DNA of 64,000 bases, taken from positions 1,302,001-1,366,000 of the forward strand of contig NZ_CP089974.1 in the NCBI RefSeq assembly GCF_030177935.1, in the 5' to 3' direction. Below, one piece after another: positions 45,587-49,504 of this stretch. A program made the translations under genes and the position numbers. The notes under the pieces were generated by a model, which searched no databases, had not been told where the DNA came from, and was given only the letters and a program-made list of their open reading frames with translations. The stretch is from Moraxella haemolytica (GTDB taxonomy: Bacteria > Pseudomonadota > Gammaproteobacteria > Pseudomonadales > Moraxellaceae). Position 1 is the stretch's first letter. Every line of letters begins with the position of its first letter.

Positions 45587-45832
45587 TTAAGCCGACCAAG
45601 TATCATCAGCTTGTGTTTTTTGCTGAGCATGTAAGTTTTTAGTATCCAAGAGCGTCTCATCAGCTTGCTTTTGGTTTTTTAACATACTAGATAATATTTT
45701 ATTATTTTTATCAAATGTCCGACAATGCCTACACATGGCAAAGTGCAAGATTAGATATGCCTTTTGTTGCAACGAAAGAGATTTTTCTAGAGAAAGACTA
45801 GCTAGCTGGCTTATTTTTTGACAACTTTTCAT
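45587..45832 (-). CDS. zf-HC2 type soluble anti-sigma factor
   Basis: An 81-residue protein with the zinc-binding anti-sigma pattern: Cys4, then His30-x3-Cys34-x2-Cys37 in LILHFAMCRHCRTF. It has no membrane segment, so it should act in the cytoplasm. It starts 9 bp after the stop of the sigma-factor gene, the usual pairing of an ECF sigma with its inhibitor. It is inferred to hold the sigma factor until a metal or oxidant disturbs its zinc site. The C-terminal half is polar and not conserved in any way that I recognise. Confidence 0.82.
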   Translation of the reverse strand: MKSCQKISQLASLSLEKSLSLQQKAYLILHFAMCRHCRTFDKNNKILSSMLKNQKQADETLLDTKNLHAQQKTQADDTWSA

Positions 45833-45841
45833 AACACTCCT

Positions 45842-46486
45842 TTATTCATCAAACCAATGACGAGTCAAGCAAGTTTGCAAATTAAGTCTGGCTCGGTGCA
45901 TAAGTACATAATAATTTTGTTTGCTAATTTGTACGGTTTGGCAGATTTCATCACTATCTAATGCCAAATACTCTTTCATCAAGAATACTCGTGCTTGCTC
46001 ACCTACTAAATTATTCAAACAATAACTCAAAACCTGCCAAAAATGATGATTGTGTATTTGTAATTCTGGGTCGCACCACGAATCATCAAATGCTGTAGGC
46101 ATATAATCTTTATGCCACCGCCCTGCCTCAGAAAACACCAAATCCGCCATTTGCGTCTGATTCTCACCATCACCCAAATCACTCAATGTGGTATAAGGCA
46201 TATTTTTGCGAAGGCAATCGGTGATTTTATGCTTTAAGATTGCAAAGACCCAGCTTTTAAACGCCGAATTCCCCTTAAAATTTTTGGCATATTGCATAGC
46301 AGATAATAAACATTCTTGCACTGCGTCCTCTGCCAAGCCACTGTCATTGAGTTGATTTTGTGCAAATTTTAATAATTCTTTATACAAACCACCCAAATAT
46401 TGCTCATTTAATGAATAATGTAGAATATGTGCTGTTTTATTATCTTTTAATAATAACTTAATAAATGTTTGATACTCATCATTCAT
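45842..46486 (-). CDS. ECF-type sigma factor of the hvf operon
   Basis: A 214-residue sigma-70 family protein of ECF type. Region 2 includes LAEDAVQECLLSAMQYAKNFKGNSAFKSWVFAILKHKITDCLRK, and region 4 includes LVGEQARVFLMKEYLALDSDEICQTVQISKQNYYVLMHRAR, a helix-turn-helix. About 35 residues between them are acidic and variable. AAGGA precedes the ATG. It follows doxX by 10 bp and precedes the zf-HC2 gene. It probably directs transcription of its own operon, starting at hvfA, but no promoter logo could be tested here. Confidence 0.9.
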   Translation of the reverse strand: MNDEYQTFIKLLLKDNKTAHILHYSLNEQYLGGLYKELLKFAQNQLNDSGLAEDAVQECLLSAMQYAKNFKGNSAFKSWVFAILKHKITDCLRKNMPYTTLSDLGDGENQTQMADLVFSEAGRWHKDYMPTAFDDSWCDPELQIHNHHFWQVLSYCLNNLVGEQARVFLMKEYLALDSDEICQTVQISKQNYYVLMHRARLNLQTCLTRHWFDE

Positions 46487-46496
46487 TATTTATTCC

Positions 46497-47135
46497 TTAT
46501 TTTAAGAAGCGTTTGCCCAAAAAATAATCCACGCTCACATACTTGCCTGCCCCATAAAATAATAAAGGCAGTAGCATAATCAAATAAGTTGCCGCAAACT
46601 CTATGCCATTATTTAAAATAACAAAGTTACCCATTTCAGTCAGCCAATCATAATTGCCGTGTTCTTGTAGAATCTCACGAGCCTTCTGTAGCCTTAACGC
46701 AACTTCTTCTGCATGATTAAGGCTATCATTAGCATTGCCAAAGCCTAATTTTGACCAGAATAAAGCGATACTAGTACTAGCATCACTTGATGCAATGGCA
46801 GACCAACCGTTTTTTAGATGCACCGTTAGCCCTGCCACCGCCATAGTGATAATCAAGCTAAGGCTAAAAAAGCGTGTCATCACCCCAAACAATAACGCAA
46901 ATCCACCAATAAGTTCTGCAAAAATGCCCAAGACTGCCATCAAAACAGGAAAAGGCAATCCAAGACCCCAATCACTATTGCCAAACCATTCGGCGATTGA
47001 TTCAAAACTGTTCAACTTAGTCAACCCTGCAACAATAAAAATGGGTGCTAGGTAAATACGGAGCAATAATAAACCAACAAAATCCAACGCTTGTAGTTTG
47101 GTAATGGCAGTTGTATATAGACGAGACATTTTCAT
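46497..47135 (-). CDS. DoxX-family membrane protein
   Basis: A 212-residue inner-membrane protein of the DoxX family, with four or five hydrophobic segments: LLLRIYLAPIFIVAGLTKL, PFPVLMAVLGIFAELIGGFALLFGV, LSLIITMAVAGLTVHL, and a C-terminal segment before YFLGKRFLK. A soluble insert of about 60 residues (near 110-170) precedes the last segment. DoxX proteins accompany DUF692/DUF2063 pairs in gig and bufferin clusters, where their exact role is unsettled. It starts 18 bp after hvfC. Confidence 0.9.
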   Translation of the reverse strand: MKMSRLYTTAITKLQALDFVGLLLLRIYLAPIFIVAGLTKLNSFESIAEWFGNSDWGLGLPFPVLMAVLGIFAELIGGFALLFGVMTRFFSLSLIITMAVAGLTVHLKNGWSAIASSDASTSIALFWSKLGFGNANDSLNHAEEVALRLQKAREILQEHGNYDWLTEMGNFVILNNGIEFAATYLIMLLPLLFYGAGKYVSVDYFLGKRFLK

Positions 47136-47153
47136 TTTTTTACTCTTAGATAG

Positions 47154-47951
47154 TTATATGATGATATTTTGGGCAAGTAATTCAGCAAATAAATCATCAG
47201 CATAAGCCAATAATTCATCAATATTATGGTAATCAATATGCTTGGCAAAATCAGTCACCAACTCACCTACTGATGAATATACCCGCTCATTATTTTGTAT
47301 AAAATCAATAAATAGATGTGTCAAAGCATTGGTGTGTACAAATTTAACTTCATTATCAGATGCTCTTAATACCACCAAAAATACTTCATTGGGGGCTATA
47401 TCATTGCAATTATCCACACTGATGGCATGCACGGGATAGGTATAATGGCTGTTTTGTACGCTTGGATTTAGACCATAAGATTGGTTATCTGGCGTTTTTA
47501 AAATAGGCTTTGCTGTTAAGTTAGCAAGAGTATCTACATGCAACTCCAACCACTCATAATGAGCCAACTCGCTTAAATAATCAGGCACAAAATCAATATC
47601 ATTGTTTGTGATGGTGATTTCATCGTGCCAGTCTGGACTGTCCGTCATCAGTTGTGATAAAAAATTCACAAACTGCATGGGAATTTCATTAAAATAAGGT
47701 GAATGAGATGGATATCTTTGGAAAAAATACAGCGACAGCACATGAAAATTATCATCACCCAATATCTCACGACAAATCGGAAAACATTGATTTAAAAAAT
47801 TACGCACATTATTAAAAATCAAGGTTTGATAAATCCCACCCACACGGCTAGGTATGCCATCATCTTTAGCATGATACTGCGAACGCAAATAATCACCAAA
47901 TTGATTTTGAAATTGTTGCAATGAATAAGGGGCAAGTAAAGTTACGGTCAT
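47154..47951 (-). CDS. hvfC: DUF2063 partner protein HvfC
   Basis: A 265-residue protein of the DUF2063 (HvfC/BufC) family, the partner that brings the precursor peptide to the DUF692 enzyme. Family segments are SLQQFQNQFGDYLRSQY near the start, GIYQTLIFNNVRNFLNQCFPICREILGDDNF, FQRYPSHSPYFNEIPMQFVNFL and YLSELAHYEWLELHVD. The frame extends to a TTG inside hvfB, but I chose the ATG at 47951 for the family start. It lies 13 bp past hvfB. Confidence 0.9.
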   Translation of the reverse strand: MTVTLLAPYSLQQFQNQFGDYLRSQYHAKDDGIPSRVGGIYQTLIFNNVRNFLNQCFPICREILGDDNFHVLSLYFFQRYPSHSPYFNEIPMQFVNFLSQLMTDSPDWHDEITITNNDIDFVPDYLSELAHYEWLELHVDTLANLTAKPILKTPDNQSYGLNPSVQNSHYTYPVHAISVDNCNDIAPNEVFLVVLRASDNEVKFVHTNALTHLFIDFIQNNERVYSSVGELVTDFAKHIDYHNIDELLAYADDLFAELLAQNIII

Positions 47952-47964
47952 ATTCTTAAAAAAT

Positions 47965-48846
47965 TTAGGCAATCAGTGTATAAGATTGTTCAGCTTTACG
48001 CTGAGCGGTATGGATTAAATTGACCTCTTGGCGTAATACATCCAACTCAGGAAAATTAAAATCTCTTTCTAGGCAGGTAGGAATATCCACCGCCTTTTTT
48101 CCTGTTCGCCGATAAATCTCATGGTAGGCTTCATCTAGCAATCGCCAGACAGGTTCAATCACCGCATTACCATGCGTATCTATGATAAAGCCATCTTCTT
48201 CTACATAATGCCCTGCAACATGCATATAACACACCTTATCTAGTGGCAACTCATGTAAATATTGAATAGGGTCAAAACCAAAATTTTGGCTATTGACATA
48301 AATGTTGTTGATATCCAGATGCAACAAACAGTTAGCTTCTTTGACCACAGCGGTGATAAACTCACTATCGCTCATGTCGCTGTCTGGTGGTGCATAATAA
48401 TAACTGGCGTTTTCAAAGCCAATTTGCATACCCATAATATCTTGAGCTTGTTTAATGCGATTTGCTGTCCACATCACAGCATCGTTTGTACAAGGAATGG
48501 GTAACAAATCATACAAATGCCCCTTATTGTCAGATGTCCAAGCCAAATGTTCGGTGTACAACTGCATTCCATGCTCTTGCATAAACCGCTTGATATTTTT
48601 TAATAAATGAATATCCAATTCAGCACTGCTGCCAATTGACAGTGATAAGCCATGACAAATAAAGGCAAATTGCTCAGTGTAGGACTTGAGTAACTTGTGA
48701 TATTGTCCGCCCATTCTCCCTGATGAGTTCAACCAATTTTCAGGAGACACTTCAAAAAAATCAATGTCTGACAGATTTTCTGCCTTCATTTGTGTGCAAA
48801 GTTCACGACGAAAACCTAGTCCTGCACCTTTAGGATAGCCATTCAT
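47965..48846 (-). CDS. hvfB: DUF692 multinuclear iron oxidase HvfB
   Basis: A 293-residue DUF692 (MNIO) enzyme. Characterised members such as MbnB and HvfB use two or three iron ions and oxygen to turn cysteines in a peptide into oxazolone-thioamide or thiooxazole groups. The TIM-barrel metal-binding positions are visible: His65 (ICHGLSLSIG), Glu99 (YTEHLAW), FEN at 144-146, Asp178 (LHLDINN), His209 and His213 (MHVAGHY), and DTH at 223-225. The ATG at 48846 has GGGAGAGG upstream. The modified residues are expected to be the EGKCG cysteines of HvfA. Confidence 0.93.
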   Translation of the reverse strand: MNGYPKGAGLGFRRELCTQMKAENLSDIDFFEVSPENWLNSSGRMGGQYHKLLKSYTEQFAFICHGLSLSIGSSAELDIHLLKNIKRFMQEHGMQLYTEHLAWTSDNKGHLYDLLPIPCTNDAVMWTANRIKQAQDIMGMQIGFENASYYYAPPDSDMSDSEFITAVVKEANCLLHLDINNIYVNSQNFGFDPIQYLHELPLDKVCYMHVAGHYVEEDGFIIDTHGNAVIEPVWRLLDEAYHEIYRRTGKKAVDIPTCLERDFNFPELDVLRQEVNLIHTAQRKAEQSYTLIA

Positions 48847-48936
48847 ATCAACCTCTCCCAATCAATGACAATCTGTATAAAACCAAAAAGCAATCAAATG
48901 GGCAATACACCCATTTGATGCGAAAATTTCAGAGCG

Positions 48937-49221
48937 TTATTTACTACCGCCACACTTACCTTCACCACACTTACCTTCACCGCATTTGGCTTCAGCTTTT
49001 TTGCTTTTTGTGCTTACACCGCCACACTTACCTTCACCGCATTTGGCTTCAGCTTTTTTAGTTTCGGCTTTTTTGGCTTTCTTTTCAGCACATTTTTTAT
49101 CAGTTTTGTCGCATTTGACAGTTTTGTTTTGATAGCCTTGTGCCATTGCAGTCATCGCAAATGGGCTAGCACCTGCGATAACCAGTGAGCCAACTAGGGC
49201 AGTTTTTGCTAATTTTCTCAT
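48937..49221 (-). CDS. hvfA: HvfA-like Cys-rich RiPP precursor
   Basis: A 94-residue exported peptide, rich in Lys, Glu and Cys. Residues 1-27 are a Sec signal peptide (ending AMA). The mature part has KCDK and KCAEK, then three EGKCG motifs at 63-67, 82-86 and 87-91, within two copies of KKAEAKCGEGKCG. EGKCG is the site that HvfBC enzymes convert into copper-binding oxazolone-thioamide in Haemophilus HvfA. It is first in an operon with hvfB, hvfC, doxX, sigma and anti-sigma. That the product sequesters copper is inferred from family knowledge. Confidence 0.9.
   Translation of the reverse strand: MRKLAKTALVGSLVIAGASPFAMTAMAQGYQNKTVKCDKTDKKCAEKKAKKAETKKAEAKCGEGKCGGVSTKSKKAEAKCGEGKCGEGKCGGSK
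48950..49062. repeat. Direct repeats inside hvfA
   Basis: A block of about 40 bases coding for KKAEAKCGEGKCGG occurs twice (near 48966-49007 and 49018-49060). The first also contains a duplicated EGKCG unit of 15 bases. The copies are almost identical at the DNA level, so unit number may vary between strains. Confidence 0.75.
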
Positions 49222-49300
49222 AAAATAACTCCAATTGATGCTTTATCATAACTTGTCATCACCTTAAGACCATGTACAGTTACCATAAAGCATGATGCAT
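49222..49300 (-). promoter_or_regulatory. Candidate hvf operon control region
   Basis: On the minus strand GGTAAC (49279-49284) resembles the -35 of many ECF sigma promoters and lies about 58 bp before the hvfA ATG. No -10 is convincing. ATGCTTTAT (49238-49246) and ATAAAGCAT (49285-49293) form a 9-bp inverted repeat around it. The assignment is speculative. Confidence 0.3.
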
Positions 49301-49474
49301 TTAAAAAACCAAACAAAAACTGCTTGGTAATCATTAGTCGTGAATTTTTGTTAAATCTTACATTTTTATAAAAAATTTTTAAAAAATAAAATACAGCCCA
49401 AACTAAATGACGCCATGAATTTGAAAGTAAACCATAGCATTGTTTTTGCTTTTTATGTTGTCATCAAGACAATG

Positions 49475-49504
49475 AAAAAAGCAGACTTTGATAGCCTACT
49501 TTTT
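49475..49504 (-). terminator. Terminator after sirB
   Basis: AAAAAGTAGGCT and AGTCTGCTTTTTT pair (with wobbles) around ATCAA, about 17 bp after the sirB stop on the minus strand. It separates sirB from the hvf operon. Confidence 0.7.

What the first reader, a model, noticed from the sequence alone, without database searches (positions are those of the whole stretch)
45587..49221. Six-gene HvfA/bufferin-type copper RiPP operon with its own ECF sigma and anti-sigma factors
The minus strand reads, in order: an exported Cys-rich peptide with EGKCG motifs, a DUF692/MNIO enzyme, a DUF2063 protein, a DoxX protein, an ECF sigma factor and a zf-HC2 protein, all closely spaced. Known relatives (Haemophilus hvfABC, Legionella gig genes, bufferins) make modified copper-binding peptides. 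The inference is that Moraxella senses copper or a related stress through the sigma pair and makes a secreted or periplasmic copper-binding peptide. The linked regulator pair at the end of the operon suggests positive feedback.
Basis: partly seen in the sequence, partly recalled or inferred. Interest (0 to 1): 0.85.

Follow-up and report, generated by a model that had tools for sequence, protein, structure and literature searches.

The report
Copper-peptide operon with own stress switch
This Moraxella DNA encodes a known kind of gene set that is predicted to make a small copper-binding peptide, together with its own genetic switch; the switch looks more like ones linked to chemical (oxidant) attack than like a copper sensor, and in several related species the set also carries a gene resembling a bleach-defence enzyme.

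Summary
The six-gene minus-strand operon at 45587-49221 is real: HvfA (five KCG motifs), HvfB, HvfC, HvfX, an ECF sigma factor and a cytoplasmic ZAS-type anti-sigma factor. It belongs with the captophorin/oxazolin copper RiPPs and has the gene content of the published Neisseria sigma-E (gonophorin) operon: a new member of a known kind.

Added here: (1) An ECF promoter upstream of hvfA (49334-49362) resembles the Neisseria consensus. It is the only strict match in this genome; 9 of 11 strict matches in 22 Moraxella genomes lie upstream of hvfA. This supports autoregulation of a very small regulon. (2) All 23 distinct anti-sigma proteins detected share C-x25-HxxxCxxC and lack a membrane segment. 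(3) In six Moraxella genomes the operon also carries an RclA-like flavoprotein and a rhodanese lipoprotein, suggesting reactive chlorine/thiocyanate stress. (4) 10 of 14 precursors in named Moraxellaceae loci have a lipobox; this one does not.

Thiooxazole formation, copper binding and the signal are inferred from relatives.

The parts
49334..49362 (-). ECF promoter TGTAAGATTT-N12-CGACTAA; its end is 112 nt upstream of the hvfA ATG
   Evidence: Resembles the published Neisseria sigma-E consensus (PMC2893595), departing at one base of each box. Only strict match in the 2.12 Mb genome; 9 of 11 strict matches in 22 Moraxella genomes are upstream of hvfA
48937..49221 (-). hvfA: precursor peptide, 94 aa, signal peptidase I site AMA|QGYQN read by eye, 7 Cys, 5 KCG motifs, no lipobox
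48893..48919 (-). Hairpin plus T-rich tail between hvfA and hvfB, a possible attenuator giving more precursor than enzyme
   Evidence: z -3.29; the scan as a whole is weak (6 terminator-like sites against 3.6 +/- 1.9 in shuffles)
47965..48861 (-). hvfB: MNIO (DUF692) peptide maturase; likely start ATG at 48846
   Evidence: 371.3 bits, cut-off 360. E150, D183, N186, H214, D228 align with chain 7dz9 residues whose numbers are VcMbnB iron ligands; H70, H105, E265 are shared with 3BWW
47154..47972 (-). hvfC: DUF2063/RRE partner protein; likely start ATG at 47951
   Evidence: 3dee is the best solved-structure match, E 1.8e-8, residues 15-108 only
46497..47135 (-). hvfX: DoxX-family membrane protein
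   Evidence: NF050144, 225.9 bits, cut-off 80
45842..46486 (-). ECF sigma factor
   Evidence: only one place in the genome matches it at E<=0.001
45587..45832 (-). ZAS-type anti-sigma factor, 81 aa, C4/H30/C34/C37 as in meningococcal MseR, no hydrophobic segment
   Evidence: (NF052368); MseR numbering from PMC2893595
45436..45480 (-). Terminator-like hairpin after the operon
49476..49504 (-). Terminator-like hairpin after the preceding sirB-like gene, separating it from the operon

Best explanation
A captophorin (oxazolin/gonophorin-type) operon under a dedicated ECF switch. At rest the cytoplasmic ZAS anti-sigma holds the sigma factor. A thiol-reactive stress, most likely reactive chlorine or thiocyanate species, releases it. 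The sigma then transcribes its own operon from the ECF promoter upstream of hvfA. HvfB with HvfC would convert the five core KCG cysteines to 5-thiooxazoles; the peptide is exported through its signal peptide and ties up Cu(I) in the periplasm while oxidant and copper damage coincide. The anti-sigma, made from the same transcript, resets the switch. Shown here: the genes, families, promoter sequence, linkage and conserved anti-sigma cysteines. Inferred: one transcript, the signal, the modification, copper binding and localisation.
For: Family assignments above curated cut-offs for HvfB, HvfC, HvfX, sigma and anti-sigma. Promoter position and uniqueness. Relaxed motif in 12 of 14 hvfB loci with the sigma nearby against 1 of 66 without, that one on the opposite strand more than 4 kb from hvfB. 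In Moraxellaceae, 43 of 53 sigma hits lie within 6 kb of an HvfB homologue. C-x25-HxxxCxxC in 23 of 23 distinct anti-sigma proteins detected. An rclA-like gene inside six relatives' operons. E. coli RclA is reported as an HOSCN reductase (PMC12096828 passages) and a Cu(II) reductase (PMC7527725 abstract). The H. influenzae doxX/hvf cluster is RpoE2-dependent and HOCl-induced (PMC7907618); gonococcal NGO1947/NGO1948 rise with H2O2. Oxazolin and gonophorin carry 5-thiooxazoles, and gonophorin made with added copper carried 1-2 Cu (PMC12668002 passages).
Against: Meningococcal sigma-E did not respond to H2O2, diamide or singlet oxygen, so a simple thiol-redox switch may be wrong. The H. influenzae rpoE2 deletion kept wild-type resistance to oxidants in vitro (abstract seen). 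HOSCN is not mentioned in that paper's main text. In this genome the rclA-rhodanese pair lies elsewhere without an ECF site, so the reactive-chlorine link is indirect for this species; four of the ten Moraxella operons compared, this one included, have no rclA-like gene in them. The RclA-like proteins tested score below the RclA and MerA equivalog cut-offs. The full HvfA equivalog cut-off is not met. Counts of the promoter pattern do not exceed a reversed-pattern control; only its position is informative. No expression data exist here.
Confidence: 0.6

Rival explanations
1. Direct copper sensing: excess Cu(I) displaces zinc from, or is bound by, the Cys/His site of the anti-sigma, releasing sigma; the operon is a copper-detoxification circuit.
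For: The product class binds copper (PMC12668002). [quoted passage not shown] Another ECF sigma of this family, Acinetobacter SigAb, is copper-induced (PMC12153292 abstract). Thiol sites bind Cu(I) (general knowledge). Copper is not mentioned in the three sigma papers read in part, so it remains untested there.
Against: The anti-sigma is of the MseR/HrsE type, and HrsE's sigma gene responds to HOCl and H2O2. Six relatives put an RclA-like gene in the operon; I saw no gene named as a copper exporter among the neighbours that I had named.
Confidence: 0.2
2. Sulphur/oxidant handling: the Cys-rich peptide, DoxX protein and (in relatives) rhodanese and RclA-like enzyme mainly repair or quench sulphur oxidants in the envelope; copper binding is secondary.
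For: Rhodanese lipoprotein and small DUF2892-like genes in relatives' operons; a DoxX gene in 8 of 10 Moraxella operons compared; H. influenzae and Neisseria sigmas also drive MsrAB.
Against: Copper is the reported ligand of thiooxazole peptides. The window operon has no rhodanese, and this genome's only SelR match is a short MsrB (142 aa open frame).
Confidence: 0.12
3. Copper acquisition or extracellular metallophore used in colonisation rather than detoxification.
For: H. influenzae oxazolin is called a virulence factor whose export is open (PMC13419390 passages); in this species HvfA has no lipobox and so could leave the periplasm.
Against: No receptor or exporter family among the six genes; 10 of 14 precursors in the named Moraxellaceae loci have a lipobox, which would keep them on a membrane.
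Confidence: 0.08

Closest known systems
Neisseria sigma-E operon NMB2140-2145 / NGO1948-1943 (gonophorin operon)
   Same: Same six gene kinds: DoxX, exported peptide, DUF692, DUF2063, ECF sigma, ZAS anti-sigma. Similar promoter; reported as one autoregulated transcript; ZAS residues C4/H30/C34/C37 at identical positions.
   Different: The DoxX gene is at the far end (NGO1948) from the anti-sigma in Neisseria and fourth here. Neisseria sigma also drives msrAB; this genome has only a short MsrB and no strict ECF match other than hvfA's. I held no Neisseria sequence; the comparison rests on the papers.
H. influenzae hvf operon (oxazolin) with RpoE2/HrsE
   Same: HvfA with AEGKCGEGKCG motifs, HvfB, HvfC, HvfX; under a ZAS-regulated ECF sigma, HOCl-induced.
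   Different: RpoE2/HrsE are described next to msrAB, apart from the doxX/hvf cluster; here sigma and anti-sigma end the operon.
Bufferins (BufA/BufB/BufC; DUF2282 type)
   Same: MNIO plus DUF2063 and DoxX, exported Cys-rich precursor; copper-stress role reported (PMC12452194).
   Different: HvfB below the BufB cut-off (236.7 vs 310), no DUF2282 match; the survey passage pairs Buf1 sigmas with NrsF anti-sigmas, not ZAS proteins.
E. coli rcl operon (RclA)
   Same: RclA-like flavoprotein present in six relatives' hvf operons.
   Different: Not in the window operon; RclR-regulated in E. coli; the two tested score below the RclA equivalog cut-off.

Membership tests
Captophorin / HvfA (oxazolin) RiPP | Exported precursor with repeated EGKCG-type motifs | tested here: met
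   NF050137 35.9 bits vs 19.5; 5 KCG, 3 exact EGKCG; export signal judged by eye
Captophorin / HvfA (oxazolin) RiPP | Full-length HvfA equivalog NF050188 | tested here: not met
   38.8 bits vs cut-off 95; the five relatives' precursors tested also miss it
Captophorin / HvfA (oxazolin) RiPP | MNIO maturase of HvfB type with iron ligands and catalytic Asp | tested here: met
   371.3 vs 360 bits; E150, D183, N186, H214, D228 aligned to 7dz9 (VcMbnB numbering); H70, H105, E265 and D267 by alignment to 3BWW and conservation
Captophorin / HvfA (oxazolin) RiPP | DUF2063/RRE partner and DoxX protein beside it | tested here: met
   HvfC 182.3 vs 142; HvfX 225.9 vs 80
Captophorin / HvfA (oxazolin) RiPP | 5-thiooxazole formation and copper binding | not testable with these tools
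   needs mass spectrometry and metal titration
Bufferin (BufA/BufB) | BufB-type MNIO and DUF2282 precursor | tested here: not met
   BufB model 236.7 vs 310; no DUF2282 match. The Buf2 precursor signature was not tested
Neisseria-type sigma-E/MseR switch | ECF sigma followed by small ZAS anti-sigma without membrane segment | tested here: met
   C4/H30/C34/C37
Neisseria-type sigma-E/MseR switch | Own promoter of consensus GTMAGBWTT-N12/13-CGTCTAAH before the operon | tested here: met
   GTAAGATTT-N12-CGACTAA: same boxes and spacing, with one departure from the printed consensus in each box (A for B in the -35, A for T in the -10)
Neisseria-type sigma-E/MseR switch | msrAB in the regulon | tested here: not met
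   only a short MsrB in the genome; no strict ECF match apart from hvfA's
Neisseria-type sigma-E/MseR switch | Sigma/anti-sigma binding and signal | not testable with these tools
   needs bench work

The most novel reading that the evidence does not exclude
Across Moraxellaceae this ECF/ZAS pair is a dedicated captophorin switch that senses HOSCN/HOCl. The full module, seen in six relatives, couples an RclA-like Cu(II)/HOSCN reductase, a periplasmic rhodanese and a membrane-anchored thiooxazole peptide into one pathway that reduces and then traps copper during peroxidase attack on mucosa. The window species has the RclA-rhodanese pair elsewhere and has turned its peptide from a lipoprotein into a soluble one.
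Probability: 0.28. Interest if true: 0.62.

Novelty: new member of a known kind. Interest (0 to 1): 0.4.

Why it matters
What turns captophorin operons on, copper or host oxidants, is open in the papers I read. This family offers a compact testable case: one promoter, one sigma, one anti-sigma, one operon. The RclA-like/rhodanese neighbours in related species tie copper-binding peptides to reactive chlorine and thiocyanate defence; I saw no paper on that link in the listings (15 of 26 shown; 1 paper, unrelated; 7 of 8 shown).

Tried and rejected
Bufferin proper: rejected, HvfB is below the BufB cut-off and there is no DUF2282 match. A wide regulon: the strict promoter pattern occurs once in this genome. 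With up to 3 mismatches and a 12-nt spacer the hvfA site is the only match with fewer than 3 mismatches in G000; a loosened 13-nt spacer was not searched genome-wide. msrAB as a target: no ECF site in the loci of the five long SelR-containing frames of relatives, or near the rclA-rhodanese pair here. SigAb of Acinetobacter as the same sigma: set aside because its anti-sigmas are described as AabA and AabB (abstract and passages); I did not compare sequences. Sigma-70 promoters: 17 found against 18.4 +/- 4.4 in shuffles, uninformative. A solved structure for the anti-sigma: no hit.

Limits of the counts. L071, L072 and L073 have a distant sigma hit (20-28 bits) on the other strand and were counted as without the sigma; some of the 66 loci are short contigs or lie near contig ends. 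The anti-sigma proteins were found with a model or query from Moraxella ones, so their shared motif is partly by selection; none was found in L062. G010 and G017 fail the strict pattern at hvfA and only match a looser one (first base of the -10); 6 of 7 fetched loci hold a site before an operon gene; L145 has none (short upstream stretch), in L143 it precedes a divergent DoxX gene, in L146 the sigma gene.

Errors of mine: one search used an 11-nt spacer, which is not the motif, and is uninformative. The matrix scan did not cover 13-nt spacing; repeated by regular expression. The first lipobox count missed L060 and the second precursor of L063, and the second count missed L064 because its Cys is followed by Gly; I combined both.
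Full report
Observation. Six ORFs run head to tail on the minus strand from 49221 to 45587. NCBIfam names five of the six proteins above a curated cut-off for the whole protein: HvfB, HvfC, HvfX, a TIGR02943 sigma factor and an anti-sigma subfamily. HvfA passes the KCGExKCG domain cut-off but not the full-length HvfA equivalog. HvfA has 94 residues, 7 cysteines, 5 KCG motifs and 3 exact EGKCG. HvfB keeps the MNIO iron ligands: E150, D183, N186, H214 and D228 align with residues 135, 165, 168, 194 and 209 of chain 7dz9, which are the numbers listed for VcMbnB in PMC8888699 (passages). H70, H105 and E265 follow from the 3BWW alignment and from invariance in seven Moraxella sequences.

Anatomy. 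The genes are tightly packed after hvfB (gaps of 18, 10 and 9 nt; hvfB/hvfC overlap as called). Terminator-like hairpins follow the preceding sirB-like gene (49504-49476) and the anti-sigma gene (45480-45436), and another with a T-rich tail lies between hvfA and hvfB (48919-48893). The last folds better than shuffles (z -3.29) and could give more precursor than enzyme. The terminator scan as a whole is only modestly above shuffles (6 vs 3.6 +/- 1.9).

Promoter. Upstream of hvfA lies TGTAAGATTT-N12-CGACTAA (49362-49334). The published Neisseria sigma-E consensus is GTMAGBWTT, 12-13 nt, CGTCTAAH (PMC2893595, passages); the window site departs from it at one base of each box. The strict pattern GTAAG-N16/17-CGWCTAA has 11 matches in 22 Moraxella genomes: 9 are upstream of hvfA, and the other two (G010, G017) are both upstream of the same methyltransferase-like gene, while the hvfA sites of those two genomes match only a looser pattern. 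It has exactly one match in this genome. Of the 12 genomes with a sigma match, 10 have a match to the pattern; the two without are G013 (operon cut by a contig end) and G021 (remnant). Of the 10 genomes without a sigma match, one (G014, 63% complete) has a match, upstream of an hvfA cut by its contig end; the other nine have none. The reversed pattern gives 0-7 matches per genome, so position, not number, is the evidence. A looser pattern occurs in 12 of 14 named hvfB loci with the sigma nearby (11 of 11 Moraxellaceae) and in 1 of 66 without it. A site also precedes an operon gene in 6 of 7 further loci fetched from the family, among them a second operon in G067 and two loci of genus g15. This supports autoregulation and a very small regulon.

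Linkage. HvfB close homologues occur in 10 of 22 Moraxella genomes; an eleventh genome (G014) has only weak matches, at 24-25% identity. The sigma occurs in 12 of 22: those ten, plus G013 and G021. In 249 genomes of the family, 43 of 53 sigma hits lie within 6 kb of an HvfB homologue, while 28 of 71 HvfB hits have no such sigma nearby. Trees of HvfB and sigma both place the window with M. boevrei and M. oblonga. The operon sits beside different genes in different Moraxella.

The switch. All 23 distinct anti-sigma proteins detected keep C-x25-HxxxCxxC and have no hydrophobic segment. In the window these are C4, H30, C34 and C37, the positions reported for meningococcal MseR. In H. influenzae HOCl and H2O2 raise rpoE2 expression, and RpoE2 drives the doxX/DUF692/DUF2063 cluster after HOCl; yet the rpoE2 deletion had wild-type oxidant resistance in vitro (PMC7907618, passages and section 29). 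Gonococcal NGO1947/NGO1948 rise with H2O2, whereas meningococcal sigma-E did not respond to H2O2, diamide or singlet oxygen (PMC2893595, passages). 'Copper' occurs nowhere in the main text of PMC7907618, PMC2893595 and PMC3240639. The signal is thus open; hypochlorite-like stress has the best support, and copper has not been tested in that work.

Extra genes in relatives. The two tested match RclA best (532 and 540 bits, cut-off 740) and HOSCN reductase MerA next. A rhodanese lipoprotein follows it in all six, and then a small membrane protein (which I call DUF2892-like from recall) that reads full length in five of six, not in L018. I saw the abstract of PMC7527725 (RclA as a Cu(II) reductase induced by HOCl) and passages of PMC12096828 (RclA as an HOSCN reductase). 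This genome has an rclA-like gene and a rhodanese lipoprotein gene side by side at another place, without an ECF site. The reactive-chlorine reading is therefore an inference from neighbours in relatives.

Peptide anchoring. Among 53 precursor ORFs detected in the 80 named loci, 10 have a lipobox by my rule (combined). All ten are among the 14 from Moraxellaceae; none of the 39 others has one. Psychrobacter loci L062, L063 and L070 each carry one precursor with and one without. The window and M. boevrei peptides lack it but share the start of the signal peptide with M. oblonga, whose lipobox (TVAC) is weak. I infer a change from membrane-bound to soluble peptide. These are motif calls, not a trained predictor.

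What is known. Oxazolin and gonophorin contain 5-thiooxazoles, and gonophorin made with added copper carried one or two copper atoms (PMC12668002, passages). The gonococcal genes NGO1943-1948 are of the same kinds (PMC2954202, passages). The window operon is a new member of that kind, with a different gene order. In the text I read of the MNIO survey (PMC12452194, passages and section 15), sigma/NrsF genes are noted for Buf1 clusters, and the EGKCG section names molybdopterin-oxidoreductase and ferric-reductase partners, not ZAS pairs or RclA. Figures and supplements were not seen.

Noticed in passing
L014, L016, L017, L018, L019, L021: Longer version of the operon with an RclA/HOSCN-reductase-like flavoprotein, a rhodanese lipoprotein and (full length in five of six) a small DUF2892-like protein between hvfA and hvfB.
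   Followed up: partly
L058:2395-4109 (G000:C1:2074894-2076608): In the window's own genome an rclA-like gene and a rhodanese lipoprotein gene sit side by side, far from hvf and without an ECF site.
   Followed up: partly
L140 and L141 (G067): One genome carries two hvf operons, each with its own sigma and anti-sigma; in the second the precursor looks like a lipoprotein and no DoxX gene was found.
   Followed up: partly
L023 (G021): Decayed remnant of the operon: a sigma frame with an internal stop and a DoxX fragment, no hvfB.
   Followed up: no
L053:1501-1529, L057:1501-1529: A second ECF-type site upstream of an isoprenylcysteine-methyltransferase-like gene (L057's copy is below that family's cut-off) followed by a PhzF-like gene (name from recall) in two Moraxella genomes.
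   Followed up: no
window 49222-49335: The hvfA leader folds better than shuffles (z -3.11); a hairpin with a T run lies just after the presumed start site, and M. boevrei has a similar one.
   Followed up: partly
L062, L063, L070, L144: Two precursor genes per operon, one with a lipobox and one without (L144 judged by eye).
   Followed up: partly
L020 (G010): A rhodanese lipoprotein gene between hvfA and hvfB without an rclA-like gene; no DoxX gene found in this operon or in L015.
   Followed up: no
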